Assembly (NCBI GenBank): GCA_937873665.1
Contig: CALMYW010000519.1
Span: 16,764-80,763 of the forward strand
Reading direction: 5' to 3'
Source of the DNA: an uncultured Sphingorhabdus sp.
GTDB taxonomy: Bacteria > Pseudomonadota > Alphaproteobacteria > Sphingomonadales > Sphingomonadaceae
Length of the DNA stretch: 64,000 nucleotides
In this document: positions 44,195 to 64,000 of the stretch, in pieces
How the letters are laid out: every line of letters begins with the position of its first letter
Numbering within the stretch: position 1 is the first letter of the stretch
Made by a program: the position numbers and the translations under genes
Notes under the pieces: generated by a model
What the model was told of the DNA's origin: nothing
The model's input: only the letters and a program-made list of their open reading frames with translations
Databases searched by the model: none

Positions 44195-45447
44195 GCTTTT
44201 ACTCCCATTGCTGAAGCTATCGAGGAACAGATGCGCGATGCGGCATCCATCACAGCGTCGTCGGCCAAGTGCGCATAACGCGCGGTCGTTTCCGGCAAAC
44301 TATGGCCTAGGAGCTTCCCGATCACGCTGAGCGAGATGTCGTCGCGGATCGCAACCGAGGCAAAACTGTGCCGCAGGTCGTGCATCCTGACATCGGCGAG
44401 TGCCGCGCGTTTGCGCAATATCCGCCAAATGGGATCAACGTTGAAGGGGACATGGGTTTTGCGGACACAGCCAAAGAGCAAGCCCGATTGCGAACGATTG
44501 GGTAACGCATCGATAACCGCCTGTGCCTGCCGGTTGAGATAGATGACCTTGGGACCTGTCTTACTGTCGGGAAGGAACAGGCGTGGCGGCTTGATATACT
44601 CCCAGCGCAATGCAACGATCTCACTGCGGCGTGCGCCAGTGAAAATCAGAAGCCTGATGATAGCGACCGCCTTCGGGAACTCGCTTTCCGCCTCGCGCAG
44701 GACGGCAAAGAGGCGGCGATATTCAGCCGGGCTCAAATAGCGTTCGGGTAGCTTCCGCTTGAAACGCGGAGTTCCTCTGCACGGGTTCGAACCTCGCCGC
44801 CTATACCCCAATTGCTCGGCATAATTGAGCATCACTGCCAATACCGGCAATGTGCGATTGAACACACCCGAGCGCGAGGCCATCGCATCGCGCCAGCGCA
44901 TGACTTCGCACCGCGCAATCGAGGCCAATGGCATATCGCCAAAGACCGGTATCAATTCCGAATAAACTGCCTGGCGATTGCGATAGACGGTCTGCGGTTT
45001 CCAATGCCGCTCATAATCACTCAAAAATTCATCGACATAATCGGCAAATATGACAGACTTTGGTAAGCGCTCTTTGGCTCTTGTCGGTAGGCCATCAAGC
45101 TGGTTTGCAGCCAACCGTTCGCGCGCCTTCCGCCTTGCCTCCTCAGCGCTGACCTTGTTGACAGGTCCCAGACTGATCGTGCGTTGTACTCCGCGTTCGC
45201 GATAAAAGACGACCCAGTTTTTGCCATTGGGCGGACGGAAACGAAGACCGAAACCGGGAAGCTCGCTATCCCAGATCGTTTCGCTATGCTTGCTGCAACT
45301 TCTGCGCGCGGTATGATCGGTCAGCCGGACAGGTGGATTTTGTCGTCGGCGATCCGTTTGGGATTGCTGATTCGTTTCCCCTTCAAGACCCGTTTTCGGG
45401 GTAAGCGGATAGCCATTTCCACCCCCCGGAACGAGCGTGTCGCCCAC
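44191..45447 (-). CDS. Tyrosine recombinase/integrase (first of tandem pair)
   Basis: 418 residues from GTG 45447; later starts are possible since the first 55 residues are low in complexity. It carries an arm-type DNA-binding region (WDSELPGFGLRFRPPNGKNW), a core-binding domain and the catalytic domain: Arg in GARRSEIV, Lys in DSKTGPKV, HDLRHSFAS, LGHSLPET and Tyr in TARYAHL. It overlaps the next recombinase by ATGA. Its start lies 54 bp from the right att-like repeat, the usual place for an element's own integrase. Only two recombinases are present, so this is not a RIT trio. Confidence 0.92.
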   Translation of the reverse strand: MGDTLVPGGGNGYPLTPKTGLEGETNQQSQTDRRRQNPPVRLTDHTARRSCSKHSETIWDSELPGFGLRFRPPNGKNWVVFYRERGVQRTISLGPVNKVSAEEARRKARERLAANQLDGLPTRAKERLPKSVIFADYVDEFLSDYERHWKPQTVYRNRQAVYSELIPVFGDMPLASIARCEVMRWRDAMASRSGVFNRTLPVLAVMLNYAEQLGYRRRGSNPCRGTPRFKRKLPERYLSPAEYRRLFAVLREAESEFPKAVAIIRLLIFTGARRSEIVALRWEYIKPPRLFLPDSKTGPKVIYLNRQAQAVIDALPNRSQSGLLFGCVRKTHVPFNVDPIWRILRKRAALADVRMHDLRHSFASVAIRDDISLSVIGKLLGHSLPETTARYAHLADDAVMDAASRICSSIASAMGVKA

Positions 45448-49798: not shown

Positions 49799-50147
49799 AG
49801 TCGCAAACGGTCAATAGGCCCTTGAAGCTGTCGATGAGATCGAGCGGCCGGGCATCAAGGTCAAGATTATGCGTCTGGAGCCAGCGGCGCGCCGCCGCGT
49901 CGTCGCTTCCCAGAAGCGAATCCAGGCTTCTGAACAAGCGCAGCAGAAATTGTCCGGCCTCAAAGGACTTGGACGCCGGATCGAGCATAGTGCGCCCGGT
50001 GGTCAACCGCGAGGCGGTCGCCTGCGAGAGACCGAGAATGGTCCCCAATTTGGCGGTGCTCAGACCCCAATAATCTGCTATTTTTGCAATAGCAGAGGTG
50101 AGAACGCGGGCATCCTCCTGTGCATCAACCTTGAAGCGCGTAGCCAT
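49770..50147 (-). CDS. Xre/MbcA-type antitoxin of RES toxin
   Basis: 125 residues from ATG 50147 with AAAGGATG upstream. The central HTH (LGTILGLSQATASRLTTGRT) and the C-terminal region (SLDSLLGSDDAAARRWLQTH, related to the MbcA/ParS/Xre toxin-binding domain) are typical. Two overlapping palindromes directly upstream are likely its operator, giving autoregulation together with the toxin. Gene order antitoxin-toxin and overlap are standard for this TA class. Confidence 0.85.
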   Translation of the reverse strand: MATRFKVDAQEDARVLTSAIAKIADYWGLSTAKLGTILGLSQATASRLTTGRTMLDPASKSFEAGQFLLRLFRSLDSLLGSDDAAARRWLQTHNLDLDARPLDLIDSFKGLLTVCDYVDAHRARV

Positions 50148-50159
50148 GGTTCATCCTTT

Positions 50160-50197
50160 CATTTGAATATAATGACATATATTCATTCAAATGAATA
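50160..50197 (-). promoter_or_regulatory. Two overlapping palindromic operators of the RES/Xre module
   Basis: CATTTGAAT (50160)/ATTCAAATG (50185) is a perfect 9-bp inverted repeat. TATTCATT/AATGAATA with a 2-nt spacer (50180-50197) is a second, overlapping one. Both lie within 50 nt of the antitoxin ATG in an AT-rich promoter region. Confidence 0.75.
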
Positions 50198-50229
50198 GTA
50201 AAATCTTCGTGTCGATGAACGCTCCGCAT

Positions 50230-51159
50230 TCAGGCCGCTTCTGCCACGGACTCTGCCTCGCCGAGGCCACATTCGCGGCCACCGAGTTTCAACAGCAGCG
50301 CACTTGCTTCTTCGGCGCGGGCAGCGGCGGTGAGGATTGCGCGGTCATCGTCGCGCAACAACTTGAGCCAATGGTCGACATAGCTTGCATGATTGTCGAG
50401 ATGGGTGACCGGAAGTCCGAGTTCAGCGCCCAATATCGCGCTCGACAATTCGGCAATCAGTTCTTCGGCGGCATAGGCCGCACTGCCGAAGCGGTTTTTG
50501 AGATTACGGTCGAGCCGTGATCCATGCCCGGTCCAGTGCGACAATTCGTGACCAAGCGTCGCATAATAATGGTCAAAGCCTGAAAAGAGCTCGGGTGAGG
50601 GCATGGTGATCCGGTCGGCGGCCGGTTCATAATAGGCTTCGGAGCCCATATGGCGAAGTGATGCCGGTATCTGGCTGAAGAATAAGTCAAGGTCAGCTTT
50701 GCGCCCCTCCGGTTCGACCAGCGTAAGATCGTGCAAGGGATGATAGCGTTCGGGCAATCCGTCGATCTGATCGGCATTGAACACGGCATAGGCACGAAGC
50801 ACACGGCGGCTTTCTACCTGTGTTTCTCCGCTTTCGGGCGCCTCGACCTCCTTGGAATAGCATTTGTAGAAAATCGCGATGGTCGACTTCTCGCCCTTGC
50901 GCACCTGCGCGTTCAATTTGTTCGCCTGCGCATAGGTCATCCAATAGGGCGAGGCATAGCCGCACATATCAGCAACCATCCAGAGCCAGAAGACATTCAT
51001 ACCCCGATAGGGCGTGCCGCAACTGCGCAGAGGGCGCGACACAGGGAGACCACGCCAGGGTTTGACCCAGGGTTTGGTGCCAGCCTCGAGCCTCTCGATG
51101 ATCTGGTTGGTGATGTGGGTCGCAGGCGACACGCCAGCGCGTTTCGAATGATAAGCCAT
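50230..51159 (-). CDS. ardC: ArdC-like antirestriction/ssDNA-binding metallopeptidase
   Basis: ATG 51159 has AGGAG upstream and gives 309 residues; the open frame to 51288 is leader. An N-terminal ArdC domain (QIIERLEAGTKPWVKPWRG, YRGMNVFWLW, GEKSTIAIFYK) binds ssDNA. The C-terminal zinc-metallopeptidase domain has His204-Glu-Leu-Ser-His208 (LGHELSHWTGH) and a downstream AAEELIAELSS that supplies the third ligand. ArdC-type proteins protect incoming conjugative DNA from restriction. It follows parB on the minus strand but has its own leader and may be separately regulated. Confidence 0.9.
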   Translation of the reverse strand: MAYHSKRAGVSPATHITNQIIERLEAGTKPWVKPWRGLPVSRPLRSCGTPYRGMNVFWLWMVADMCGYASPYWMTYAQANKLNAQVRKGEKSTIAIFYKCYSKEVEAPESGETQVESRRVLRAYAVFNADQIDGLPERYHPLHDLTLVEPEGRKADLDLFFSQIPASLRHMGSEAYYEPAADRITMPSPELFSGFDHYYATLGHELSHWTGHGSRLDRNLKNRFGSAAYAAEELIAELSSAILGAELGLPVTHLDNHASYVDHWLKLLRDDDRAILTAAARAEEASALLLKLGGRECGLGEAESVAEAA

Positions 51160-51175
51160 GTGGGAAACTCCTGAA

Positions 51176-51244
51176 TGTCGGCCGGACCAGTCCGGCAATC
51201 GACATGGACCACAGGCTCCCCTCTCCTCTCTTTCCATTTGGCGA
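51176..51244 (-). promoter_or_regulatory. ardC leader with hairpin and ParB-shared motif
   Basis: A hairpin (TGTCG...CGACA with inner CCGGAC/GTCCGG, 51176-51204) is followed by a 31-nt pyrimidine-rich stretch (51214-51244) ending CCATTTGGCGA. The stretch aligns without gaps with the parB leader at 53431-53461 (20 of 31 identical). Confidence 0.5.
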
Positions 51245-51250
51245 TGAGAA

Positions 51251-51285
51251 GAAGCGGCCCCCATGTTTGCCAAGGGAGCCGCTTC
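51251..51285 (-). terminator. Hairpin after parB, possible weak terminator
   Basis: GAAGCGGC and GCCGCTTC are perfect 8-bp inverted repeats with further C/G pairing inside, 36 nt after the parB stop. The minus strand continues with TTCTTCTC and not a full U-tract, so termination may be partial. Confidence 0.5.
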
Positions 51286-51320
51286 CAACGCAGGCTCAAA
51301 CCCGTCCTGTCAGGAGGAGG

Positions 51321-53366
51321 TCAGGCGGCGAGTTCGACGCCCGCATTGTTGGTTGTTTCCCGATTGATGGCGGGATCTAGGGCGGTCGACCCATCGGCAT
51401 CCGGTTCAGCACCGTCTGCTGCATCTGCTGCGATCTCCGCATCGGTTTCGTTCGCAGATCTGTCGCCAGATGTATCGGCAAAGCGCATTGCGGGGGGCAG
51501 CCAGGCAAGTGCTCGTTCCTTAACCTCAACTTCGGTGATGAAATTGCCGGCGAAGATGCGTTCAGCGCTTGCAGCAAGTTCACCTTTCTTCGATGCTGAG
51601 AAGCGCGAAGCAAGCGTAGGCCCACCCACATCGGTCAATGCTTCGAGGATCACGGCTTTCGAGACCCTGTCGAAATAATTGGCCGCAGTCGGACGCCACC
51701 AGGCTGCCATGTCGATCCCGGTCAATTGCCCCAGATGGTCGTGGAAGACATTGCCGCGATTGCCGCTCACATTGAGGCTCGCCTCGAGCGTGCGACCGAC
51801 CACCCAGCCAAGCCATGCCGAACGGGCTTCATCGTCGAGGCGGCGGAAGAGGTCGAAACGCTCGGCAATGCTGTCGCCCGCGCGCCAGCTTTCATCGAGA
51901 CCGCCGCGAAGTTCGGCGATCGCAGCAGTGGCTGCCGCATCCTTCGCTTCAAATCCGTGCGCCGGACCCGATGAAGCCGATCCCCGGATGGTAAGGCCCG
52001 GTGATGTAGACCAGCGGTAGGTGTCCGCGTCGGCCAGAATGAACACGAACAGGTCGAGGGCGAGCGCGGGATCGCTTGCAACATGGAGCGCCAGCACGTC
52101 GCGGCGTTGCATCGCGAGTTCGTCGACGAGCCGCTGCGACATGGCCGCGCGAGCGGGCTTGTCACCCGATCCACTGCTGACGACCTCGACCGCGCCTTCC
52201 TCGCTTGAGTTCACGACAAGCACATTAGTGAAATATTGCGGCTGGAGCGTGGGCACACCGTCGCGGCCAAGCGTCAGGATCATCCCGCTTTCGCGCTTGA
52301 TGTCGGCGTCGATCTCGACCGGACGGTCACGGATCGCGGCAATTTCGGCATCGATGCGCTCGATTTCTTCGGACGCTGCACTTGTATCGTCCTCGCTTGC
52401 ATCTTCATCCTCGAGGATGACCGCTTGCGCGTCATAGGCGGCATCGAGCTCTTCGATGCGGGCCAATTCGTCTTCGGTGTAGACGCGCTGGGGTACGGGA
52501 ACGCGGTGCAAGCCTTCGACAAGGTCATGGCTCACATAGACGTCGAGTGTCGGCTTAACCCAGGCAAGGCCCTGCTCTGCCGCAACGCTGGCTGCCGCCT
52601 CTTCCATCCTGGCATTTGCGAGATTTTCCAGAAGTGCAACGTCGAGCCAGCTTTCATTCTCTTCATCGTCGAACAGCTCGCGGTCGACGCGCCCGCCGGC
52701 TGCAAGATAGGCGTCCTTCCCGACCAGTTTCGCACGCGGATCGCTGCCGCGCACCGTACTGTTCAATACCATGCGGCGAATGCTGTCAGGCGAAGCGCGG
52801 TAGCAGGATTGGACGACTTCATCATAGACACGCGCCTGGATGGCCTGATCCGAGGTTGCCCCGTAAGCTTTCGCCATATCGAGCGTGATCTCGCCTGCAG
52901 CCAGCGCTTCGAAGACCACAGGGGCAAGCGATGCCAGACGCAGGCGGCCTTCGACGAAGCGGACGGTCAAGCCAAAGCGTCGTGCGACATCTTCGGGCGT
53001 TGCACCGGTTTCGATGATGCTCGCAAAAGCTTGTGCTTCATCGGCCGGGTTCATCTTGAGCGTGTGAAAATTCTCGGCAAGGCTTGCTTCGCGAACCTGC
53101 GTTTCATCACCGTCGAGAACCAGACACATGATGGGGAGTGTGCGCGACAGATGCTTGTCTGCCGCAAGCGCGAGCAAAGCCCTGCGGCGGCGTTCGCCTG
53201 CTTCCACCTCATATTGGCCCTTCTTGCCTTCGCGAACCACGAGGTTCTGCAAAAGGCCGTGCGCTGCCACACTTGCCTTGAGTTCGGCATCGGCGACCGG
53301 ATCGGAGCGCTTGCGGACGTTCCGAGGGGATGCAACAAGCTTGTTCAACGGAATTGACTTGATCAT
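51321..53366 (-). CDS. parB: ParB/RepB/Spo0J-domain protein
   Basis: 681 residues from ATG 53366 with CAGGAGAAAT upstream. The N-terminal ParB/sulfiredoxin-like domain is clear: SIPLNKLVASPRNVRK, YEVEAGERRRRALLAL (the GxRR CTP-binding box) and REASLAENFHTLKMNP, followed by HTH helices (TPEDVARRFGLTVRFVEGRL). A long C-terminal extension of about 450 residues holds an acidic coiled coil and an Ala/Asp-rich tail. No ParA gene is adjacent. This large ParB type is common on sphingomonad plasmids, where it may act in regulation or replication as well as partition. Confidence 0.9.
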   Translation of the reverse strand: MIKSIPLNKLVASPRNVRKRSDPVADAELKASVAAHGLLQNLVVREGKKGQYEVEAGERRRRALLALAADKHLSRTLPIMCLVLDGDETQVREASLAENFHTLKMNPADEAQAFASIIETGATPEDVARRFGLTVRFVEGRLRLASLAPVVFEALAAGEITLDMAKAYGATSDQAIQARVYDEVVQSCYRASPDSIRRMVLNSTVRGSDPRAKLVGKDAYLAAGGRVDRELFDDEENESWLDVALLENLANARMEEAAASVAAEQGLAWVKPTLDVYVSHDLVEGLHRVPVPQRVYTEDELARIEELDAAYDAQAVILEDEDASEDDTSAASEEIERIDAEIAAIRDRPVEIDADIKRESGMILTLGRDGVPTLQPQYFTNVLVVNSSEEGAVEVVSSGSGDKPARAAMSQRLVDELAMQRRDVLALHVASDPALALDLFVFILADADTYRWSTSPGLTIRGSASSGPAHGFEAKDAAATAAIAELRGGLDESWRAGDSIAERFDLFRRLDDEARSAWLGWVVGRTLEASLNVSGNRGNVFHDHLGQLTGIDMAAWWRPTAANYFDRVSKAVILEALTDVGGPTLASRFSASKKGELAASAERIFAGNFITEVEVKERALAWLPPAMRFADTSGDRSANETDAEIAADAADGAEPDADGSTALDPAINRETTNNAGVELAA

Positions 53367-53430
53367 GGGATTTCTCCTGAAGTGCGAGCCGACGCACCGC
53401 CAATCGGACGCCAGAGCTCAGCTGCTCGAG

Positions 53431-53461
53431 GGCCCCCTCCCCTCTTTGCTCCAGTTGGCGA
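53431..53461 (-). promoter_or_regulatory. parB leader motif shared with ardC
   Basis: A pyrimidine-rich 31-nt stretch ending CCAGTTGGCGA, 65 nt upstream of the parB ATG. It matches the ardC leader in position and sequence, with the 3' end most conserved. Confidence 0.45.
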
Positions 53462-53502
53462 ACTACCATGGCCCTACTTTGCCCAGCACAATCGGCCACG
53501 AG

Positions 53503-53551
53503 CATAAAATTCTTGAACCTTTCATATTGTGGAAGTATTGAGAATTTTATG
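53503..53551 (+). promoter_or_regulatory. Inverted-repeat operator of AbiE operon
   Basis: CATAAAATTCT (53503-53513) and AGAATTTTATG (53541-53551) form a perfect 11-bp inverted repeat whose right arm includes the abiEi start codon. AbiEi proteins are known to repress their own operon through inverted repeats. Confidence 0.7.
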
Positions 53552-54235
53552 ACAGCTTTGGTCAAAGAAATTTCAAAGGCGGGATTGGCAGGCCGCATCC
53601 TTGCAGAACGACAGCTCGCAGAGCTTGTTGGCGGGAGTGCTGCGCGCCGTTACGGGCTGGTCAACCGTGCGATCAAGGATAGAGCGCTGCTCCGCATCAA
53701 GCGCGGGACCTATGTGCTCGCAGCTCACTATCGGGCCGAGCCGGTCCATCCCTTTGCTGTCGCGCAGAGCCTGCTTCCCGGCAGTTACATCTCATTCGAA
53801 ACAGCACTTTCCTATCATGGCTGGATCCCGGAGAGCGTGTTTACGACTGCCAGTGTATCGCCGGGCCGTAAGACGCTCGAATATACAACCGAAGCCTTCG
53901 GCAGCTTTGTCTTTCACCCGCTCGCTATCCATCAATATCGCCTGCTGACCAGCGTCGATCGCGTGGTCCTCGGCAAACAGACTGCTCTTGTTGCCCAGCC
54001 CTTGCGGGCCCTTCTCGACCTTATGGCGTTGCGCAAGCAGCCTTGGCAGGGCCTCGATTGGCTGACGAGCGGCATGCGGATCGACGAAGCGCAGCTGTTT
54101 GCGCTTAAGCGCACAGATTTTGCCGCATTGAAGCCCGTCTACAAGCATAAGGCGGTGAATGCGTTTCTCAACCAACTCGAAGACGCGCTGTTGAGCGGGA
54201 AGGCAACTGGCCGACGGAGTTCGCGAAATGATTGA
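53549..54235 (+). CDS. abiEi: AbiEi-type antitoxin/repressor
   Basis: ATG 53549 gives 228 residues; the longer frame would run through the operator. The N-terminal winged-helix region (LAELVGGSAARRYGLVNRAI, then LLRIKRGTYVLA) and the C-terminal antitoxin domain (SYISFETALSYHGWIPES and later helices) match AbiEi. It overlaps the AbiEii gene by 8 bp. Family knowledge: AbiEi/AbiEii is a type IV toxin-antitoxin that also gives phage resistance. The inverted repeat around its start suggests autorepression. Confidence 0.88.
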   Translation: MTALVKEISKAGLAGRILAERQLAELVGGSAARRYGLVNRAIKDRALLRIKRGTYVLAAHYRAEPVHPFAVAQSLLPGSYISFETALSYHGWIPESVFTTASVSPGRKTLEYTTEAFGSFVFHPLAIHQYRLLTSVDRVVLGKQTALVAQPLRALLDLMALRKQPWQGLDWLTSGMRIDEAQLFALKRTDFAALKPVYKHKAVNAFLNQLEDALLSGKATGRRSSRND

Positions 54236-55118
54236 TCTGATCAAGGAACGGCTGCGCCGCTATGCTGCTGCAAATCCGCTCGAAGAAGAAAATGCGGTCA
54301 AGGAAATCCTCCAGGAAATCGCGCTCTACGCGCTTTGGCGCAGTGATTTTTTCGATGTCGCCCTGTTCCAGGGAGGCACCAGTTTGCGCATCCTGCACGG
54401 CCTGCCGCGGTTTTCCGAAGATCTGGATTTCCTACTGCGTACACCAAACCCTGATTTTGACTGGTCGCCCTATCTGGCCACGCTCACGCAAGTGGCTGCG
54501 GAGTTCGGCGTCAAGCTGGAGGCGCAGCCGCCTGCCCGGATGGATAAGGCCATCCATGCAGCGCTCATCAAGAATGATTCCATTGCCAATCAGCTGGACT
54601 TGTCTTTTGTCGGCCAAGACCGGCGAAAAACAATCCGGATCAAGCTCGAAATCGACGTCAATCCGCCCTTGGGATCGGGGGAGGCCACGAGCTTTCTCGA
54701 TTTCCCCCTGGATTATGAAGTGCGCCATCAGGACCTACCGTCCAATTTTGCGCTCAAGATTCATGCGCTTTTATGTCGCGGCTTTTTGAAGGGTCGCGAC
54801 TGGTTCGATTTTTCCTGGTATGTTTCGCGCGATATCTCGCCCAATCTCGCTCTCTTGCGCAATGCTCTCATTCAGGCAGGTCCTTGGAAAGGCGATGAAA
54901 CCATTTCCGTCGATATCGCATGGCTGAAAGCAGCACTTTCCAGCACGATCGCCAAGATCGACTGGAAGGAGGCGGGTGAGGATGTTGCCCGGTTCCTCCG
55001 CCCAGCAGAGCTTCGCTCAATTGACCTGTGGAGCGAGCGGTTCTTCACGGCAAAGCTCGATAAACTTGCAATTGCGGCGATTGAAAAGCCGATTCAAAAG
55101 AGCAAATTAGATCGGTGA
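54228..55118 (+). CDS. abiEii: AbiEii/AbiGii nucleotidyltransferase toxin
   Basis: 296 residues from ATG 54228. The nucleotidyltransferase core is clear: Gly49-Gly50-Thr-Ser-Leu-Arg (FQGGTSLRIL) and Ser-Glu-Asp65-Leu-Asp67 (RFSEDLDFLL), with later KLEIDVNPPL and FALKIHALLCRGFLKGRDWF, which matches the conserved Lys/Asp segments of the family. It probably transfers nucleotides to tRNA or another RNA and arrests growth when AbiEi is lost or during infection. Codon use and GC match the backbone. No terminator is visible after it. Confidence 0.9.
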   Translation: MIDLIKERLRRYAAANPLEEENAVKEILQEIALYALWRSDFFDVALFQGGTSLRILHGLPRFSEDLDFLLRTPNPDFDWSPYLATLTQVAAEFGVKLEAQPPARMDKAIHAALIKNDSIANQLDLSFVGQDRRKTIRIKLEIDVNPPLGSGEATSFLDFPLDYEVRHQDLPSNFALKIHALLCRGFLKGRDWFDFSWYVSRDISPNLALLRNALIQAGPWKGDETISVDIAWLKAALSSTIAKIDWKEAGEDVARFLRPAELRSIDLWSERFFTAKLDKLAIAAIEKPIQKSKLDR

Positions 55119-55474
55119 TTTTTGCAGTCACTAACGAAGTAAGCCAGCCCGTAGGCAATTTGGTGCCGTGGGACGCTATAAAGTTTCAGACATAGGGGTA
55201 TCTTGCACCATTGACCGCTTCCGCTAACATTTCCGCCGTTCGTCGCTCTGAATTTGATCGTCAGAACCGGTCGTTCGTTCAGCAGATTTGCAGAGCCCAT
55301 GAATGACCGCCTTTGCGGCCGCAGACCGTATGTCTGTGCGGCTGCTTTGTTGTCGGAGACGGTCCGTCAGCTTCCATTGTGCTGAGTCATCCTCCTTGGT
55401 TGGCGGCGCGAGACCGATTGGGTGGAACCACCAAACGTGGCCTCGGAGCCTTCTGGAGGCCAACCGATCGAACG
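55119..55474. other. Intergenic, no gene seen
   Basis: Lies between convergent abiEii and the GAP1-like gene. Open frames lack ribosome sites and family-like content, and no strong terminator is visible on either strand. Confidence 0.45.
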
Positions 55475-57517
55475 TCATTTGATCTTTTTAGCGATGTAGT
55501 CCGCTCTTGCCTTCATCCCCTTCTCGTTTGAGTTTTTAAGCCTTTTGTAAACGTCTCCTAAGTATCGGCGGCCGCGGCTAGTTTGAGCCGCTTCATCAAT
55601 CAGCGCGAGCGCCATGTTCCCATCATCGGCCAATCTTCCGAAAATGTCTGGATCGAGGCGATTGTCGACAAATTTACGCGTCACGGTTTCCCGCAAACGA
55701 GAGCTGTTGTCCCAAACAAGCCAACTGCCTCCTTCAAGGCGCCGGGTCACCATGATTTCCACTTCATAGCGGTAGCGATCCGCTCGCAATGCCCGGTAGA
55801 CCCGAGCATAGGAAAATCGAAGCAGCTCGGCCGGTGATTGCGAGCGGGATCCCAAAGCCCTTGCGCAAAAAAAAGCGGCAAGAAACTCTTCGTCTGACTG
55901 ACTCAATTGCCCTTTTGCATGCTTCAACGCGGTTAGCCATGGATCGTCGGCAAGATCGCTGGAGACACTGTCCGGGTTAGAATAGCGTGCCAAGTCGGCA
56001 ATGGAGGAAAGCCTCCCGACTTTGCCGGATGCCAGCACCGCCCCTAGCTTGTCCGGATTGTTGGCGAGGGCCCGCAACCAAAGCTGAACGGCTTGGTGAT
56101 CGGCTTCTGCTGATTCCAGCGCGCGAACAAGCGCGTCTGGTTCGCTATGATGTACGATCATACTCGCCGGGCCTGTTCTGCCAGCGGCAAGAAGGGCCAA
56201 GGCTGCTTGGCCAGCGTCTTTGATCAGTATGTTGGATGCGAGTTCGTCATCGACGTCCGGCATTCGCCAGAATTCGGCCTCAAGCAAAATGTCCGGTCGT
56301 TGTTCTACGATCGGTGGAATGAGCGACGCGTGCGTTCGGAGCCCAGCGATGATTTCCTGACCTGGCATTTCCTTCAGCGCGTGGGCAGCTAGCTCTCCCA
56401 GGGGTCCGTCTTCAACCAAAGCTTGATGGAAGCGATCGGGCGACCGCTTCCAGAGCGCAATTCCGAATTTATCGGCTACCTCAATCTTCTCGCCGAAAGC
56501 CGAGGGCGATTTGAGCGTGTCGAGCAAAAATTCAAAAACGGTATCGTCAAGACCATCGAAGCTTCCCAGCGCCTTTCGGAAAAGGAGTGAGCGAACCGAG
56601 CGTGCTTGTCGACGCCCATTTTGATCCAAGCTGGCAAGCGCCCCTACAGCGCCAACCAGGTCGGGCGTGTCATTGACGAAGAGGCTCGAGTAGAGGTGAC
56701 ACAGCGGGACCATTGCGCGTCTGCCGCCATCGACGTCGCCGCCCGCACGCCGGAGGAAATCGCGAAGACTTCCCCCTGCTGGTGTCACTAAATCGATCAG
56801 CAGAGGGTTAAGAGCAGGGTTTGGGCGCACGTCGTGTGCCGCTATCGCATTTGGGAATTTTGAGGCGAGTTGACGATCGCTTAGCGGCGCAAGTTGGAGA
56901 TCGAGCGCTACACCCTTGCCGGCGCGATCCATCCCTGAAAGTGTGCAGAAGCCGAATGCTCGCCGTAGCCTTGGCCATTGCTGCATCCATATTGTGGTCA
57001 CAAGTCGCTCGTCCTCGAATGGCTCCTCGCATGCGGCGACGATCGCTTTTTCTGGGAAGGAATAGAGCGCATTGACGATTTGCCCGGCTCGCAAATAGCC
57101 GTCCAGCCGTTGCGGAACAGCCGATGGAAGGACCGTTATTGGAACTCGATAGGCTGAAGCTGCATCCTGATTGCTTGGTCGTTTGAACCCATCAAACAGG
57201 GGTTGGGCCGATGCCATTGTCGCGAGGTCAGCATTGTCGATAATCAAAGAGTGAGTCCATACGCAGCCAGGACGCGGCATTTCCGGAGCTGCCCAGGTTC
57301 GCGCGAGTACATATTTGCCGACCTTTTCCAGCGCGTAGCCGGTCAGATAGCCAGTCCGCTCGGGCTTGACACCAGGCCCAGACAAATCGCTCATCACGAG
57401 CATGATACGAGATTCACGGCTATCGAGCGGTAGCGAACTCGAGATGAGCCGGTGTCCATCGCTATAGCCGTGCAACGCCTGATGGACGACAATTGGTTCC
57501 ATCAGCAGATCAACCAT
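55475..57517 (-). CDS. GAP1-like GTPase-associated protein
   Basis: 680 residues from ATG 57517, overlapping the GTPase gene by 16 bp. The N-terminus (VHQALHGYSDGHRLISSS, then VMSDLSGPGVKPERTGYLTG and PGCVWTHSLIIDNADLA) matches the GAP1-N1 domain, described by comparative genomics as part of GTPase-centred conflict systems. The remaining 450 residues are helical, without known catalytic motifs, and may hold the GAP1 middle and C-terminal domains. It is the last gene of the five-gene overlapping operon. Function has been predicted, and I know of no direct biochemical test. Confidence 0.75.
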   Translation of the reverse strand: MVDLLMEPIVVHQALHGYSDGHRLISSSLPLDSRESRIMLVMSDLSGPGVKPERTGYLTGYALEKVGKYVLARTWAAPEMPRPGCVWTHSLIIDNADLATMASAQPLFDGFKRPSNQDAASAYRVPITVLPSAVPQRLDGYLRAGQIVNALYSFPEKAIVAACEEPFEDERLVTTIWMQQWPRLRRAFGFCTLSGMDRAGKGVALDLQLAPLSDRQLASKFPNAIAAHDVRPNPALNPLLIDLVTPAGGSLRDFLRRAGGDVDGGRRAMVPLCHLYSSLFVNDTPDLVGAVGALASLDQNGRRQARSVRSLLFRKALGSFDGLDDTVFEFLLDTLKSPSAFGEKIEVADKFGIALWKRSPDRFHQALVEDGPLGELAAHALKEMPGQEIIAGLRTHASLIPPIVEQRPDILLEAEFWRMPDVDDELASNILIKDAGQAALALLAAGRTGPASMIVHHSEPDALVRALESAEADHQAVQLWLRALANNPDKLGAVLASGKVGRLSSIADLARYSNPDSVSSDLADDPWLTALKHAKGQLSQSDEEFLAAFFCARALGSRSQSPAELLRFSYARVYRALRADRYRYEVEIMVTRRLEGGSWLVWDNSSRLRETVTRKFVDNRLDPDIFGRLADDGNMALALIDEAAQTSRGRRYLGDVYKRLKNSNEKGMKARADYIAKKIK

Positions 57518-58386
57518 TGGAGCGGCAAGGTAATGTCGGTGCTCAGCTGATCTCCATCTACTATTTGAATTCGATCCGAAGGGCGCTCCAGTTCGCGCAA
57601 AGCGTCAGTCTCGGGAAGGCTCTCAGCCTTGTCGGGATCCTCATACACGCCCCCTTGCGCACTTACCCCCCAAACGCGCCATGTCCACGGGTCGCGACCG
57701 TTGCGCAGATATTGGGCGAGTAGTGGCAGCTTGGCCTCCAGCAGTTCCTCAGGCGAAAGTTCTTCGGCCGCCACCTTGTCCCAAGCCGATATGAGAACCG
57801 CTAGGCGTCGTGTCCCAACATTCAACTCGCCAGACATCAACATCTGCAAGAGGTCGACGATCCTCACCTGCGTGGGCGCGAAATCCGGACTCCAATCAAT
57901 CGGCTCTGGATCAGGCGTAGTCGGCAAGCCATTGCCTGCTGCTTTTGCCATTGCACTTGCTAACTTCGATTGTTCGACGATCCACAAAGGATGCTTGATC
58001 GTGTCTCCGTTCACGAGCAAAACAATTGCTGGGGTCGACAGTGTTTCCAGCATGCCGTGATCCGCCTCTCGAAGTTCCCACATCCTGCCAAAATCCTCAC
58101 CTGGCATGTCTGGAAAAGAAACTTCGACCAGTCGATTTCCTTCATCCTTCAGCCTCATCGAGACAGTTTTGGCACCACTGTGTTGAGTTCGCTGTTGGAT
58201 CTTGCCCGATCGCCAGCGCTTGGCCAGCGCGTTCAAATGCTCATAGTTCCCTTGGCTGAGATTCTCGAAGCCAAGCGTGGTCGATGCGCCAGGCTCCCGA
58301 ACCATGTGCCAAAGAGCCGCAAGGAAAGTTGTTTTTCCCGACGCCGGCAAGCCGATGATTGAAACATGGGCCGTTTGGTCAGTCAT
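57502..58386 (-). CDS. Predicted GTPase, double-GTPase-1-like
   Basis: 294 residues from ATG 58386, in an ATGA overlap with the second GTPase gene. It has Walker A GLPASGKTT (12-20), a DxxG-type switch in SFPDMPGEDF (about residues 88-97), a VLLVNGDT strand, and LISAWDK in place of the NKxD motif, placing it in the TRAFAC-type GTPases. The likely family is DO-GTPase1 of the GAP1/GASH systems. It has no transmembrane segment. With its paralogue encoded upstream, it may form a heteromeric switch that responds to infection. Confidence 0.75.
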   Translation of the reverse strand: MTDQTAHVSIIGLPASGKTTFLAALWHMVREPGASTTLGFENLSQGNYEHLNALAKRWRSGKIQQRTQHSGAKTVSMRLKDEGNRLVEVSFPDMPGEDFGRMWELREADHGMLETLSTPAIVLLVNGDTIKHPLWIVEQSKLASAMAKAAGNGLPTTPDPEPIDWSPDFAPTQVRIVDLLQMLMSGELNVGTRRLAVLISAWDKVAAEELSPEELLEAKLPLLAQYLRNGRDPWTWRVWGVSAQGGVYEDPDKAESLPETDALRELERPSDRIQIVDGDQLSTDITLPLQWLIC

Positions 58387-59429
58387 CGGATGCCGTCCTG
58401 GTTGACGGCAAAACGATCAAACATGCGATCAAATCCTGCGTGAGGCTCGGGACCAGGAACCGTCGAGGGTGTCGGCGCTTCGAGCCAGTAGAGAAGAAGA
58501 TCGCCAACGCCGTCCCCCCTCGGCACCAGCTCACTGTCTTTTGGGGATGCTGCAACCACGAAGTGCTGAATTTCGCCGAGATGGGCTGAATGCGCGGTCG
58601 ATATCGCGTGCACCAAGCCTTCGAATTCGCGTTGCGCGCGCTCAGCGTGCGGCGATTTGAGCACAGCATCCTTCTTGGTGAGGACGATGGCCAGACGGCA
58701 GCCCTTTCGTATAGCTTTGGATTCGATCAGCGCATCGATGATCTGCGGTGTTGCCGCTTTGACCTCATGGCGCTGTGTGCCATCCGCCAGTTGCTCGCCA
58801 TTTACCAGCAGTGTGATGCAATCTGCCCTTCGAAGCTCAAAAAATTCGTTTGCATGCACGAGCTGGTCAGTTGCCGCCAGATAGTCTTCCCCCGATCGGT
58901 TGCCGATAAACAGAGATCTCACATTACCGGAAGTTTGGGCGAGGTCGAGATGAAAGAAGGTGGCATCTGCGCCGCTGCTGGTCCGCTCGGTGTGAGGCGC
59001 CGTTCGGCGTGAAGCTGCGCGAGCATCATGGCATGTCTTTTCCAACCCAACGAGAGTCGTTGATCCGGCGAAACCGACGCCCGCTACGGGGCCTGCCTGA
59101 AACAAGTCATAGAGGCCGGCAATAAGACTGGTCTTTCCAGACTCGTTTGGACCAACCAGCCCAATTACGCGCGACACATGTCGGCGTTGCATTTCGGATG
59201 CGTCAGCGCGTTGCAGCGCCAGCCCTGCAGCGAGAGACATCACTTTTCTGGCGGGCTCGGGTTCGACTTTGTGCTCCTCGACAACGGCTATGTCCTTCAC
59301 GGACGGCGCGCTCAAGTGTGGGCACTCGTCGAGCGCGTAGCCTTCGACGCACTTACTGTCCGATCCAAAGCTGCACGCGGCATTGCTGCAAGTCTGTTGC
59401 TGAGAGAGCATCGGGTCAGTCGCCGACAT
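58383..59429 (-). CDS. Predicted GTPase, double-GTPase-2-like, with Cys motif
   Basis: ATG 59429 gives 348 residues and overlaps the GASH gene by 14 bp; a TTG start 18 nt earlier is possible. The N-terminus has four cysteines (14, 19, 27, 36) that may bind zinc. Walker A is GPNESGKTS (93-101), and VLTKKDAVL supplies an NKxD-like motif. The DxxG position reads IGNRSGEDY, so the switch is changed. This asymmetry with the first GTPase fits a pair in which one partner is mainly regulatory. Family assignment to DO-GTPase2 is by pattern and operon context. Confidence 0.72.
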   Translation of the reverse strand: MSATDPMLSQQQTCSNAACSFGSDSKCVEGYALDECPHLSAPSVKDIAVVEEHKVEPEPARKVMSLAAGLALQRADASEMQRRHVSRVIGLVGPNESGKTSLIAGLYDLFQAGPVAGVGFAGSTTLVGLEKTCHDARAASRRTAPHTERTSSGADATFFHLDLAQTSGNVRSLFIGNRSGEDYLAATDQLVHANEFFELRRADCITLLVNGEQLADGTQRHEVKAATPQIIDALIESKAIRKGCRLAIVLTKKDAVLKSPHAERAQREFEGLVHAISTAHSAHLGEIQHFVVAASPKDSELVPRGDGVGDLLLYWLEAPTPSTVPGPEPHAGFDRMFDRFAVNQDGIR

Positions 59430-60516
59430 AAAGGAAGAGATGTTCAAGATAGAATAGTTCGGCCAAGCGCACCGCTGGAAGTTTAGTGTCGGCAGGCAGC
59501 CCTGTCATTGCGGCCCAGCTCACTTGCCACGCATCTGCTGAGTTGACCTCCGCTCTTTTCTCCAATGCAAAATGGAGCGGTGTGGTGACCGGAGAAACTG
59601 CTTTCGCGCTAGAGACGGCCTGTGCCCAACCGATATCGGGCGCGTTTATCGCGTCTTGGATCGTGGTCGGCTTGTCGCCCACACCGGCGCGTGCGAGCAT
59701 CGCAGCAACAGATGCAGGGCCAGGCGAAATTTCTGCAAGCTCCCCCAGCTCTTTTCCAAAAGCGAGTGGCCTGAACATAGGGTCAACCTTTGAAAACGGC
59801 TTACCAGCAACGCTACTGTACTCGCCCATCAGCCACCACAGCATTTGGAGCTCTTCATCGCCAAAGGTCAATTGGCGCGAAAGCCGTTTTGCAACCTTGT
59901 TCTGGGCCTCGACGATTCGCTCCAGTGCTGCGCCGACCGAATCGCTCAGCCTTTCGATTTCCTGTTTCCATTGGTCCTCGTCCGCCGGCTCTTCTGTTTC
60001 CTCCGAAACTTCGAAATTCAACTTGGGTACCGCAATCTCCAGATCTTTGGCGTCCGGGCGTGTATGGGCTTTCTTCCGCAGGGCCGTAAGGGCTGTGCTT
60101 GCCATTGCGGCAAGGTCCATCGGGAGCTCGGGCGACCGCAGCCCGGCAAATGAGGAGGTGATGACTGCGATTGCGGCATCGGGCAGGCTCGAGAACAAAT
60201 GAACCAACGCCGCTGCTGAAAGGAACTGGAGCTCGCGTTTCGCCGATGAGGGATCCATGGAAGTCGAGCCTCCTGACATCGCAGCAAGAACGGCTTTATA
60301 TTTATCCTCCAGCGCCTCGGTTTTTGTGCCGCTGGGAGGAGCGATACTGGCAAAGGCCAGACGGATCAAAACCTCGACAGTCCGATGATCTGCAATCGCG
60401 GCAGTTTCGACAACGCCCTTCCACCGAGCAGCGCGCGTTGCGCCCTCATCCATAAACAACTCGGCATACCAGCGGGCGAAATCGGAGTTCATTTCCGGAA
60501 CCTTTACCATCCTCAA
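59416..60516 (-). CDS. GASH-like all-helical GTPase-associated protein
   Basis: 366 residues from ATG 60516, in an ATGA overlap with the phosphoesterase gene. It is helical throughout, with no catalytic motif; notable segments are NSDFARWYAELFMDEGATRA, ELQMLWWLMGEYSSVAGKPF and the C-terminal LPAVRLAELFYLEHLFLYVGD-type end. This agrees with GASH, the GTPase-associated system helical protein of predicted conflict operons. It could be a scaffold linking phosphoesterase, GTPases and GAP1. Assignment relies strongly on its neighbours. Confidence 0.65.
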   Translation of the reverse strand: MRMVKVPEMNSDFARWYAELFMDEGATRAARWKGVVETAAIADHRTVEVLIRLAFASIAPPSGTKTEALEDKYKAVLAAMSGGSTSMDPSSAKRELQFLSAAALVHLFSSLPDAAIAVITSSFAGLRSPELPMDLAAMASTALTALRKKAHTRPDAKDLEIAVPKLNFEVSEETEEPADEDQWKQEIERLSDSVGAALERIVEAQNKVAKRLSRQLTFGDEELQMLWWLMGEYSSVAGKPFSKVDPMFRPLAFGKELGELAEISPGPASVAAMLARAGVGDKPTTIQDAINAPDIGWAQAVSSAKAVSPVTTPLHFALEKRAEVNSADAWQVSWAAMTGLPADTKLPAVRLAELFYLEHLFLYVGD

Positions 60517-61823
60517 ACCTCCAGTTTGGCGACTTCGGCCGCCACCTTTTCTATCAAGTTTCGTTGGGCAGCGCGGATTAAGGCCCGTCCATATCGCTCA
60601 GGTTCGGGTAGCTTCATCTCGCCTTCTTCGAGCAGCTCCAGGCTCTGGGCAATATCGCGCCGCTGGCTGCTGGAGAGGTTCCAGAACCGATACAATAGGT
60701 CTCGCGTATCCTCCTCGCCCATGGCAGCCTCCGCATCCTGGGCGGCGATGGCCTCGCCGCTGGCTTCGAGCACCGGCACTAACGTCACAGTCGAATCCGT
60801 TGATCGGACATTGACCGCCGGAATTTCCGGCTCTTCTGGGATCAAGATGGTAGATTCGAAAACATCTGCGCCTTGACTGGTCTGAATTGCCACAAACCGT
60901 TCCGGATTGTCTTGCATACGACGTTGGTGCAGTCGAACTCTAACACAACGGGTTTTACCTGCGCCTTCGATTTCAAGATGGATTAGATTATATCCCGGAT
61001 CATAGGGCTTTTCAGATCGCGAGGGATTAACGGCTCCAGCACCAAGCCGAACATAATTTGCTTCCATGACCGCCCGTTGCTTATGCTTGTGGCCGAAAAG
61101 ATGGAACATCGCGCGTGTGGTGAGTGCTTCATCTACGTCTTCACCATCCTCGAGCCATTCAATTGGGTGATGTACAAGCGCGAGATTGATGGTGTTCGGC
61201 GCTGGGTCGAGCACGGTTTGAAGCGGGCTGAGATAGAGATGGCCGGGCTTGTCGTCTTGCCCTTCCCGGCCTGAAAGCAACGTGGAGGAGAGCCCGTAAA
61301 GGCGAAGGTTCACGCCGCCGTCCAGAGGTATGTCCTGATGCCAGAACGGCTTGGCGGGCCAGATTTGGCAACCAAACGGAGCGGCGAAGTCATTATATGC
61401 TGAATGAGGCTGGAGAAGCTGTTGGCCTGCCGCTTCGTCTTTGAGTTGCTGCCGAAGCTTGGCTTCGCGTTTTGCGAGCGCAGTCGAGCCGATAGCGTGC
61501 TGGACGTTCTGGATCGACACACCATCTTTGATCATGGCTCGATCAACGTCGTGGTTGCCCGGAACGACGAAAATGCGCTCCTTAGGACAGCCGGAGATTG
61601 AGGACAGTTGCTGAATCCAGTCGCGCGCTGCTTTGTACTCATCTGGCGCGGCCTTGTAGGCAATGTCACCGCCCACAAGTATTGCACCTACTTCTCCTAT
61701 TTGCTCGACCTGCTTCGTCAGATCGCGCATCATCCTGGTTCGGATTGGGGAGTCTGGATCCATCCATGGATCGAGGCAATCTGGCGCTTTGAAGTGGATG
61801 TCCGAAATGTGAAGTATGAGCAT
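60513..61823 (-). CDS. Calcineurin-like metallophosphoesterase with helical C-terminus
   Basis: 436 residues from ATG 61823; first gene of the operon. All metallophosphoesterase motifs are present: SDIHF (Asp8, His10), GGDIAY, PGNHD, LVHHP and GHKHK. The C-terminal 150 residues are acidic and then helical (RDLLYRFWNLSSSQRRDIAQ), a region that may act as an adaptor. Substrates of this family in defence operons can be nucleotides, nucleic acids or phosphoproteins; none can be assigned here. The promoter should lie in the 391-bp gap upstream. Confidence 0.85.
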   Translation of the reverse strand: MLILHISDIHFKAPDCLDPWMDPDSPIRTRMMRDLTKQVEQIGEVGAILVGGDIAYKAAPDEYKAARDWIQQLSSISGCPKERIFVVPGNHDVDRAMIKDGVSIQNVQHAIGSTALAKREAKLRQQLKDEAAGQQLLQPHSAYNDFAAPFGCQIWPAKPFWHQDIPLDGGVNLRLYGLSSTLLSGREGQDDKPGHLYLSPLQTVLDPAPNTINLALVHHPIEWLEDGEDVDEALTTRAMFHLFGHKHKQRAVMEANYVRLGAGAVNPSRSEKPYDPGYNLIHLEIEGAGKTRCVRVRLHQRRMQDNPERFVAIQTSQGADVFESTILIPEEPEIPAVNVRSTDSTVTLVPVLEASGEAIAAQDAEAAMGEEDTRDLLYRFWNLSSSQRRDIAQSLELLEEGEMKLPEPERYGRALIRAAQRNLIEKVAAEVAKLEV

Positions 61824-62215
61824 GTATGATCGTCCCCTGCGAGCCAGGGAGGCAACCCCGCCATGCAGAACCCGAGATAGCTCAATTCAAACAAAGTTCA
61901 AGAAGATGGTGTATGCTTAGAGCGTCGACACTTTGGTTTAGGATTTGCCGATTGCGTGAACGGCACGGTTGCAATCATAAATCGCAATTGTTCCATGTTA
62001 AAGCACAGTTATTCGATAATGTGGGTGGGCGTATTTACTTTGACGTTCTGCGAACCAGTCCTTTGCAGAACGAGCCTCTGTCGGTTCGGTGATCGTCCAA
62101 CGAAGCCGCCATGCGCAGGTAAAATGAACAAAGAGCAGCTTAGCGAAATCTAGGCTCCATATCGGACTGTCGCCACTGTCCAACTTGGCTGCCCCTGATA
62201 TCATCCGCTCAATCT
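61824..62215. other. Intergenic region upstream of the GTPase operon
   Basis: No gene seen. It holds a perfect 8-bp inverted repeat CGTTCTGC/GCAGAACG (62044-62051, 62065-62072) and an AT-rich part near 61900-62030 likely to include the operon promoter. It also separates the helicase 3' end from the operon. Confidence 0.45.
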
Positions 62216-64000
62216 TCAAACATGGGGCTTTGAAATAGCAGTCAAGATCGACGCCGCATCTGCGCATGGCAGAAAGAGCCGCGTCTGATAACGAATGATC
62301 TCGGTGAAGCAGCCTTTCGCTTTGTACCAATCCAGCCTCTCCGCCGACCAGCCTGACAGTTCCAGACGCTGACTTCCATTGACGAGCGAGCGCTTGACGG
62401 TCAGCGGCTCGACACCCAGGAGCAGCAAAGGCTTTCCAGTCCGCATGACTAGCGAAGCAAGCTCGGCTGGCGCGATTGCTTGAGGCAGGTCTGTGCCCAA
62501 GGCCGCCGCCAACTCTGGAATGTCGCCCATGCCGATCTCGCGCCCCAGCAGTGAACGGCCATCCTTCGCCGCGATCCGGCTCACTCTGACATAGTCGCCC
62601 GGAAGCTTGTCCCAGATCGGCAGCAATAGGCCGGTCGCAAGATGCAGCCGCTCGCGTTTTGGCGACGCCAGCGCTTCGGCGGTTTCGGCCCGCCAATCAT
62701 TCTCAAACTGCTCGCGCCCGACCGGTTGCCAATTGCTCTCGGCAAGCTGTCCGGATGTCAGATATTCGGCGCGCAAGGGCCGGACGAGTTCAAATCGTTC
62801 GATACGCTCGCCGTCATCGGTGAGAAGCCCGCGTGCGCGCACGGCCAGCGCGACGCGCCCCGAACGCTGGTTTTGCATCGGACGGGTATGAGCATGGCCT
62901 AGATCGTGGATTTTGGTAAGGTCTTCAAGGCCGAGCGGTCGCTGGCGGCGGGCAATCTCGATCTCGAGCAAATGCGTCGTGGCACCCGATGCAGCGTCGA
63001 TGCGCAGGACTTGATCTGTGAGTATTTGATAATCCTCGACAGGGATTGTTTCGACGCCAAGATCAAGCGTCCCTGCGACACGCGCCGCATCGACACGCGC
63101 TTCAACTAGGCCCAGATATTCATCGAAAATGCCGTTCTGCAACTGGATCGGAAAGGCGAGGATGCGATTGAGCCAGCGCTGAATGGTCGGCAGCTCGTCT
63201 AGCAATCCGCCACCTTCGGCCTCGATTCTGAGACCCGACAGCTTTTGGAATCGGTCCAGGCTGACGGCGTCGAGCTTGCCTTGGTAGAGCAAGTGGAACC
63301 AGCGAGTGAGTGCGTCTTTCGCGTAAATGCTCTCGAGATTGTCGGCCGGATTGAACAGGTTCTGCCCGCCCGTTTGGCGCTGACCGCGAGTGAGCGCGCC
63401 AAGGCTGTCGAGACGGCGCGCTATCGTCGAAATGAAGCGCCTTTCGCCCCGAACATCGGTCGTGACGGGCCGGAATAGAGGCGCTGACGCTTGATTGGTC
63501 CGGTTGGTGCGGCCAAGTCCCTGAATGGCTGCATCGGCGCGCCAGCCCGGCTCGAGCAGGAAATGGATCCGGCGCTCCTGGTTCTTCGCATGCAGATCGG
63601 CATGATAGCTGCGTCCCGTGCCCCCCGCATCGGAGAAGACGAGGATACGCTTGTCGCCATCCATGAAGGCCTGGGTTTCGAGGACATTGGAGCGGGACGA
63701 ACGCGACTGCAGCTTTTGACTACCGTCGGTTCCGACCACCAACCGCCGCGAACGTCCCGTGACCTCGGCCACTGCATCGACACCGAAGCGTTCGATGATG
63801 GCATCAATCGCGGTTGCTACAGGCGGAAGCGCACACAGCCGCTCGATCATCGCGTCACGGGCTGCGACGGCGGCACGGCAGCGGACCGGATTGCCGTCGG
63901 CATCGCTCATTGGCTCGGAACGGGCTTCGCCATTTTCATCGACAAAGACCTGCATCAACCGGACGGGAAAGCTCTGTACCAGATAGTCGATCACATATTC
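62216..64000 (-). CDS. Strawberry-notch-like helicase, C-terminal part (partial)
   Basis: The frame is open to the right window edge, so the start is outside. About 594 C-terminal residues are visible. RILVFSDAGGTGRSYHADL followed by FLLEPGWRADAAIQGLGRTNRTNQ matches the SBNO C-terminal helicase region, including the motif VI-like QGLGRTNR. The remaining part (about residues 200-590) is a family-specific C-terminal domain. Such very large SF2 proteins with methyltransferase-like N-termini are common in alphaproteobacterial plasmids and phages, and are suspected to act in DNA transfer or defence. No enzymatic function can be confirmed from this part alone. Confidence 0.85.
   Translation of the reverse strand, partial: EYVIDYLVQSFPVRLMQVFVDENGEARSEPMSDADGNPVRCRAAVAARDAMIERLCALPPVATAIDAIIERFGVDAVAEVTGRSRRLVVGTDGSQKLQSRSSRSNVLETQAFMDGDKRILVFSDAGGTGRSYHADLHAKNQERRIHFLLEPGWRADAAIQGLGRTNRTNQASAPLFRPVTTDVRGERRFISTIARRLDSLGALTRGQRQTGGQNLFNPADNLESIYAKDALTRWFHLLYQGKLDAVSLDRFQKLSGLRIEAEGGGLLDELPTIQRWLNRILAFPIQLQNGIFDEYLGLVEARVDAARVAGTLDLGVETIPVEDYQILTDQVLRIDAASGATTHLLEIEIARRQRPLGLEDLTKIHDLGHAHTRPMQNQRSGRVALAVRARGLLTDDGERIERFELVRPLRAEYLTSGQLAESNWQPVGREQFENDWRAETAEALASPKRERLHLATGLLLPIWDKLPGDYVRVSRIAAKDGRSLLGREIGMGDIPELAAALGTDLPQAIAPAELASLVMRTGKPLLLLGVEPLTVKRSLVNGSQRLELSGWSAERLDWYKAKGCFTEIIRYQTRLFLPCADAASILTAISKPHV

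What the first reader, a model, noticed from the sequence alone, without database searches (positions are those of the whole stretch)
55475..61823. Five-gene GTPase/GAP1/GASH/phosphoesterase operon, a likely untested conflict system
Seen: five minus-strand genes with start/stop overlaps of 4, 14, 4 and 16 bp: phosphoesterase, all-helical protein, two P-loop GTPase-like proteins with unequal switch motifs, and a GAP1-N1-like protein. Known: comparative genomics has predicted GAP1/GASH/double-GTPase systems as NTP-dependent conflict modules. Inferred: a calcineurin-type phosphoesterase is the effector or reset enzyme, and the GTPase pair is the switch. The phosphoesterase in first position, with a helical tail, may define a distinct subtype.
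Basis: partly seen in the sequence, partly recalled or inferred. Interest (0 to 1): 0.85.

Follow-up and report, generated by a model that had tools for sequence, protein, structure and literature searches.

The report
GTPase-switched bacterial conflict operon, textbook type
A bacterial mobile element carries an intact five-gene 'GTPase switch plus effector enzyme' operon of a kind predicted in 2020, for which no laboratory test was found here; it is a standard member of that kind, though one of its proteins may share its shape with GTPase regulators of human cells.

The parts
60513..61823 (-). Effector gene: calcineurin-like phosphoesterase domain (about residues 1-300) plus C-terminal GAAD adaptor
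   Evidence: PF00149 1.2e-9, PF19976 GAAD 1.3e-17; D8 H10 D53 N90 H91 H218 H219 H245 H247 identical in all 57 aligned rows, of 62 loci with a phosphoesterase hit (five left out by length or because a longer neighbour had been picked; L083 duplicates L006); NCBIfam DS8_antiphage 3.7e-24 and DS9_1 2.8e-17, both far below curated cut-off
60531..60707 (-). GAAD, GTPase-associated adaptor domain (residues 373-431)
   Evidence: tracks the core in pairs of loci with different effectors
59416..60510 (-). GASH all-helical protein (likely ATG start 60510; mechanical TTG start 60516)
   Evidence: PF19994 9.6e-17; AlphaFold2 model pLDDT 91, no clear PDB relative
58383..59429 (-). DO-GTPase2 with N-terminal zinc ribbon (likely ATG start 59429)
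   Evidence: PF19993 2.6e-53; four-Cys ribbon in 53 of 74 aligned rows; G3 Asp position 183: D 58, E 10, N 5 (window included), A 1 of 74
59322..59390 (-). Zinc ribbon cysteines C20, C25, C33, C42 of DO-GTPase2 (numbered from the mechanical start TTG 59447)
57502..58386 (-). DO-GTPase1
   Evidence: PF19975 8.5e-71; G1 GxxxSGKT, RT pair in likely switch I, G3 DxxGE, G4-like SAWD
55475..57517 (-). GAP1 with GAP1-N1 domain (likely ATG start 57502)
   Evidence: PF20012 1.6e-30; 850 homologues at E <= 0.001 among the 7994 candidates scored; AlphaFold2 model pLDDT 87, pTM 0.67
56618..57493 (-). GAP1 residues 9-300: longin/DENN-like region of the predicted model; Arg82 codon at 57272-57274
   Evidence: DENN chains are the only matches among the 50 listed rows that cover this region; Arg82 in 126 of 126 aligned rows; no sequence support
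55478..56296 (-). GAP1 residues 408-680: armadillo/HEAT-like helical repeats in the model
55230..62176 (.). Cargo segment: flanks 49951-55229 (96.1% identical) and 62177-64000 (99.9%) are present in genome G001, with 18.6 kb of other DNA between them

Best explanation
This is a complete GAP1-N1-type DO-GTPase conflict operon carried as exchangeable cargo on a conjugative element. Proposed working (inferred unless marked): DO-GTPase1 and zinc-ribbon DO-GTPase2 form a GTP-loaded hetero-pair; GAP1 and GASH, the least conserved core proteins in all seven locus pairs printed (shown), form the sensing and regulatory platform; GAP1's N-terminal half controls the nucleotide state of the pair, possibly through a longin/DENN-like fold and an invariant arginine; the effector is docked through its C-terminal GAAD. 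On a trigger such as phage or plasmid entry the GTPase state changes and the phosphoesterase is released or activated to cleave a nucleotide or nucleic acid, stopping growth or replication.
For: Membership: all five Pfam families above gathering cut-off; core order kept in 71 of 76 scored loci. Effector role: intact metal site in 57 of 57 aligned rows; homology to metallophosphatase domains whose catalytic residues are essential for phage defence in DS-8 and DS-9; the first-gene slot holds another GAAD protein in 9 of 71 loci, by Pfam a patatin, an alpha/beta-hydrolase or a nucleoside phosphorylase in three of them. Adaptor: in three pairs with different effectors GAAD identity (0.80, 0.63, 0.75) lies at or above the core range (0.65-0.80, 0.49-0.64, 0.57-0.68). 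Switch: G1, RT, G3 and G4-like motifs conserved in 74 aligned rows of each GTPase. Sub-assemblies: partial rank correlations of identity over 53 loci, GASH-GAP1 0.37 [0.20, 0.54] although not adjacent, DG1-DG2 0.37 [0.24, 0.51]. Defence setting: CBASS, type IIG R-M and AbiE in the same window; GAP1 relatives in 29 of 72,556 plasmid records, 28 of them conjugative or mobilizable, and in 0 of 50,697 phage records.
Against: No experiment on any GAP1-N1 system was found. The partial correlations are weak, rest only on loci with a phosphoesterase, are confounded by shared ancestry and by the shortness of GAAD, and also link the phosphoesterase to several proteins (GAAD 0.24, DG1 0.26, DG2 0.26, GAP1 0.19); they link GAAD to GASH (0.25) and DG2 (0.19) and not to GAP1 (0.00), which differs from the published idea that GAAD docks on GAP1. 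GAAD also tracks the core in same-effector pairs, so tracking alone does not prove docking. The window's DO-GTPase2 has Asn for the G3 Asp, so its nucleotide cycling is uncertain. Substrate and trigger are unknown.
Confidence: 0.65

Rival explanations
1. Same operon, but it is a plasmid-versus-plasmid or element-stability system (exclusion or addiction) rather than an anti-phage one.
For: Nearly all plasmid carriers of GAP1 relatives are transferable (28 of 29); it sits near AbiE toxin-antitoxin and ParB genes; no phage record carries it at E <= 1e-5.
Against: It shares the element with CBASS and R-M, which act on phage or incoming DNA; its effector domain is homologous to the DS-8 and DS-9 phage-defence enzymes.
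Confidence: 0.2
2. The phosphoesterase is not the damaging enzyme but makes or removes a nucleotide signal (reset or signalling enzyme), with another protein doing the damage.
For: Kaur et al. predict it as a nucleotidyl phosphodiesterase and note SLATT pore genes beside some systems; a CBASS cyclase lies about 18 kb away in the same window.
Against: The slot is taken by patatin, alpha/beta-hydrolase or phosphorylase proteins on related cores, which fits an effector slot; none of the other four genes looks like an effector.
Confidence: 0.2
3. A housekeeping GTPase regulatory module with no conflict role.
For: Kaur et al. found no link of GAP1-N1 systems with multicellular habit (P 0.9998 in their table 1).
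Against: Very patchy: PF20012 in 3 of 398, 3 of 369 and 1 of 385 genomes (samples overlap); mobile cargo; effector replacement.
Confidence: 0.08

Closest known systems
GAP1-N1-containing GTPase-centric systems (Kaur et al. 2020, eLife, PMC7159879)
   Same: GAP1-N1, GASH, two DO-GTPases with one zinc ribbon, calcineurin effector, GAAD on the effector: every element tested matches
   Different: The only departure seen in the window is Asn at the G3 Asp of DO-GTPase2 (5 of 74 rows)
DS-8 and DS-9 anti-phage systems (DefensePredictor, PMC13092281)
   Same: Homologous metallophosphatase domain (E 3.7e-24 and 2.8e-17), shown there to be essential for defence (passages)
   Different: DS-8 has a NACHT ATPase and DS-9 a HAD partner; scores here are far below the curated cut-offs (84.6 against 790 bits, 62.7 against 420)
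Longin-DENN GTPase regulators (DENND1 GEFs; FLCN-FNIP2 and C9orf72-SMCR8 GAPs)
   Same: Predicted GAP1 residues 5-309 superpose on DENN chains; invariant Arg in a strand-strand loop, as longin-type GAPs use an Arg finger
   Different: No detectable sequence similarity; GAP1 continues into armadillo/HEAT-like repeats; bacterial; its GTPases are of another TRAFAC family (as Kaur et al. class them)

Membership tests
GAP1-N1 GTPase-centric system | GAP1 protein with GAP1-N1 domain | tested here: met
   PF20012 105.8 bits, cut-off 27
GAP1-N1 GTPase-centric system | Two DO-GTPases, one with N-terminal zinc ribbon | tested here: met
   PF19975 238.8 and PF19993 181.5 bits, cut-offs 27; four ribbon cysteines
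GAP1-N1 GTPase-centric system | GASH protein | tested here: met
   PF19994 61.7 bits, cut-off 27
GAP1-N1 GTPase-centric system | Effector coupled by GAAD, EAD1 or fusion | tested here: met
   GAAD PF19976 64 bits, cut-off 23.6, on the phosphoesterase
GAP1-N1 GTPase-centric system | GTP-dependent deployment of the effector on invasion | not testable with these tools
   needs experiment
DS-8 / DS-9 anti-phage systems | Curated NCBIfam score and partner domain (NACHT or HAD) | tested here: not met
   scores far below cut-off; no NACHT or HAD listed for the five proteins at E <= 0.1
DENN module | Pfam uDENN/DENN/dDENN sequence profile | tested here: not met
   25 GAP1s scanned at E <= 10 (HMMER filters on), no DENN or longin family among the 10 listed
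DENN module | Profile similarity to DENN sequences | tested here: inconclusive
   hhalign probability 2.3% over 11 columns, but the DENN alignment held only 13 vertebrate DENND1 proteins
DENN module | Longin-DENN-dDENN fold | tested here: inconclusive
DENN module | GEF or GAP activity on a GTPase | not testable with these tools
   needs biochemistry

The most novel reading that the evidence does not exclude
GAP1 is a prokaryotic longin-DENN-like GTPase regulator: its N-terminal ~300 residues have the DENN-module fold, Arg82 in the loop between strands 68-76 and 86-94 acts as an arginine finger (or the fold acts as an exchange factor), and with the DO-GTPase hetero-pair it forms a bacterial counterpart of the Rag-FLCN/GATOR switch, wired to a swappable immune effector. 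The DENN and d-DENN domains, written in 2012 to be known only together in the DENN module and placed at the eukaryotic stem (PMC3521125), would then have a bacterial relative in a conflict system.
Probability: 0.35. Interest if true: 0.8.

Novelty: new member of a known kind. Interest (0 to 1): 0.5.

Why it matters
The system class has been a prediction since 2020 with no test that I could find, and this window holds a compact, intact, cargo-borne copy well suited to a first test. The survey gives natural cases of different effectors on related cores, in which GAAD stays with the core, as expected of a plug. If GAP1 is a longin-DENN-like regulator, a whole class of bacterial conflict systems would run on the same kind of GTPase control that eukaryotes use for membrane traffic and nutrient sensing, which bears on where the DENN module came from.

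Tried and rejected

Bias: loci L001-L074 were fetched with the peptide patterns PEM[PS]RPGC and [IL]W[ML]QQWPR, so conservation of those stretches in them, Arg82 included, is partly by construction, and the survey favours one GAP1 branch. Arg82 was therefore also read in the 120 listed word-search hits (P0001 is the window's own protein) and in GAP1s found by profile: L082 and L084 and L085 (eight sequences).

Dropped before the count of 76: L075-L077 (short copies of L082-L084), L078-L081 (window-flank matches and G001 pieces), L083 (GAP1 identical to L006), L084 (its GAP1 was not recognised by my profile), L085-L086 (fetched after the labelling run). Near-duplicates such as L054/L055 were kept in that count. 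Five of the 76 lack the core as scored: L008, L023 and L074 keep GAP1 or pieces of it (L008 also a DO-GTPase1 tail), L042 has DO-GTPase1 in two frames, L047 lacks GASH in its 4.5-kb record. L027 and L058 were counted but lie near contig ends and their first gene was not seen. L055 has phosphoesterase and GAAD in two frames and L060 its phosphoesterase in pieces; both count as phosphoesterase. Alignment counts of 57, 72 and 74 rows come after length filters and still hold L083 beside L006. In one search I chose seven pairs to print; besides the three quoted, L004/L007 (GAAD 0.77, core 0.64-0.79) and L028/L029 (0.28, core 0.22-0.36) also differ in effector, and L002/window (0.40, core 0.36-0.49) and L004/L006 (0.83, core 0.84-0.92) share it.

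Full report
What is there. Five minus-strand genes lie at 61823-55475 with near-zero spacing. Pfam-A assigns each to its own family above the gathering score: PF00149 calcineurin phosphoesterase plus PF19976 GAAD; PF19994 GASH; PF19993 DO-GTPase2; PF19975 DO-GTPase1; PF20012 GAP1-N1.

What it is. Kaur, Burroughs, Iyer and Aravind (2020, PMC7159879; I saw the abstract, passages and section 28) predicted this set as GAP1-N1-containing GTPase-centric systems: GAP1, GASH, two DO-GTPases of which one bears a zinc ribbon, calcineurin phosphoesterase as the most common effector, and GAAD as an alpha-helical adaptor on the effector polypeptide. Each sequence feature tested here is met. I found no experimental paper in the searches (open-licence PMC papers only, listings).

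Neighbourhood survey. A scan of the genome-contig collection (84,980 species) gave 74 loci; HMM searches of genome samples gave a few more. With profiles grown from the window proteins, 76 loci with a recognised GAP1 were scored, window included; 71 have GASH-DG2-DG1-GAP1 consecutively on one strand. The mechanically called spacing is between -120 and +60 bp in 65, 69 and 68 of the 71 for the three junctions. In front of GASH stands a phosphoesterase with GAAD in 59 (58 plus L082, whose GAAD Pfam recognises), phosphoesterase and GAAD in two frames in 1 (L055), another GAAD protein in 9, and no scored gene in 2 (L027, L058). Pfam on eight of the nine (all but L044): patatin phospholipase with a separate GAAD protein (L001), alpha/beta-hydrolase (L007), nucleoside phosphorylase with GAAD below cut-off (L039), a 1205-aa protein with a sub-threshold NPHP3_N match that I read as a STAND-type ATPase (L035), and proteins of 311-316 aa whose front part has no Pfam match at E <= 0.01 and which by eye resemble GNAT acetyltransferases (L028, L032, L038, L046; L044 by similarity). 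Section 28 of Kaur et al. lists alpha/beta-hydrolase and PNPase for GAP1-N1 systems but not patatin or acetyltransferase; their figure and source data were not seen. An Acetobacter plasmid, pAOF1, has five consecutive same-strand genes ending in a GAP1 relative 38% identical to the window's, the other four annotated 'all3488' or hypothetical; I did not scan those four.

Effector and adaptor. The nine predicted metal-site residues of the phosphoesterase are identical in all 57 aligned rows, so it should be an active enzyme. It is homologous to the metallophosphatase domains of DS-8 and DS-9, whose catalytic residues are required for phage defence (PMC13092281, passages). In three pairs of loci with related cores and different effectors (L006/L007, L001/window, L035/L052), GAAD identity was 0.80, 0.63 and 0.75 against 0.65-0.80, 0.49-0.64 and 0.57-0.68 for the four core proteins. 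A fourth pair (L004/L007) is close to the first, a distant one (L028/L029) gave 0.28 against 0.22-0.36, and two same-effector pairs behave alike, so the point is that changing the enzyme does not unhook GAAD from the core.

Switch. Both GTPases keep G1 (GxxxxGK[TS]), an RT pair in the likely switch I, a G3 ending in GE and a G4-like motif (SAWD in DO-GTPase1, mostly TKxD in DO-GTPase2) across 74 aligned rows each. Naming RT as switch I is my reading. In DO-GTPase2 the G3 Asp position is D 58, E 10, N 5, A 1; the window is one of the five with Asn.

Sub-assemblies. Partial rank correlations of pairwise identity over 53 phosphoesterase loci with bootstrap: GASH-GAP1 0.37 [0.20, 0.54], DG1-DG2 0.37 [0.24, 0.51], GAAD-GASH 0.25 [0.07, 0.39], GAAD-DG2 0.19 [0.03, 0.34], GAAD-GAP1 0.00 [-0.17, 0.20]; the phosphoesterase domain itself correlates with GAAD 0.24, DG1 0.26, DG2 0.26 and GAP1 0.19. 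This hints at a GASH-GAP1 unit and a GTPase pair, with GAAD nearer GASH/DG2. It is weak evidence: GAAD is short and shared ancestry is only partly removed.

Setting. Genome G001 shares 49951-55229 (96.1%) and 62177-64000 (99.9%) but has 18.6 kb between them that encodes nitrate reductase alpha, beta, delta and gamma subunit homologues, an integrase-like protein and an IS110-type transposase. The operon is therefore one of at least two cargoes in the same slot of an element with a TrwC relaxase, TrwB coupling protein and TraG. The same window carries a CBASS cyclase and 4TM effector and a type IIG R-M enzyme and AbiEi/AbiEii next door. On plasmids GAP1 relatives occur in 29 of 72,556 records, 4 of them over at least 80% of the query.

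Verdict. Known kind, standard member, high confidence in identity; mechanism inferred. The DENN-like reading of GAP1 is the part worth a specialist's time, at about one chance in three.

Noticed in passing
window 34521-37482: CBASS-like pair on the minus strand: oligonucleotide cyclase 36037-37482 (PADLOC 2.1e-186) and 4TM effector 34521-35420 (1e-77). The neighbouring 33319-34350 ORF has no Pfam match at 1e-5 or PADLOC match at 1e-6.
   Followed up: partly
window 37630-40107: 825-aa protein with Mrr nuclease and NACHT domains, no PADLOC match at 1e-6; a likely NLR-type defence protein.
   Followed up: no
window 41820-45447: Three adjacent minus-strand genes, two with tyrosine recombinase domains and one without a Pfam match at 1e-4; looks like a recombinase-in-trio element.
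   Followed up: no
window 29059-32640: MmeI-type single-chain type IIG restriction-modification enzyme (1193 aa).
   Followed up: no
window 53468-55118: AbiEi/AbiEii toxin-antitoxin pair directly beside the operon; the plasmid copies found are about 73% identical, in Sphingobium and Sphingomonas, while G001 holds a 96% stretch.
   Followed up: partly
L084:1641-12156: Mu-type transposase, TniB and TniQ genes stand directly upstream of a GASH-DG2-DG1-GAP1 core whose GAP1 and downstream nucleoside phosphorylase both end in EAD1: a Tn7-like carrier and the EAD1 style of coupling.
   Followed up: partly
first genes of L028, L032, L038, L044, L046: A family of 311-316-aa GAAD proteins in acidobacterial, verrucomicrobial and Nitrospira MAGs whose front part has no Pfam match (four scanned) and looks GNAT-like by eye: a possible unlisted effector type.
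   Followed up: partly
L008:9888-12034, L023, L074: GAP1 left alone: L008 keeps a DO-GTPase1 tail and a whole GAP1, L023 and L074 only part of GAP1, so cores appear to be lost in pieces.
   Followed up: partly
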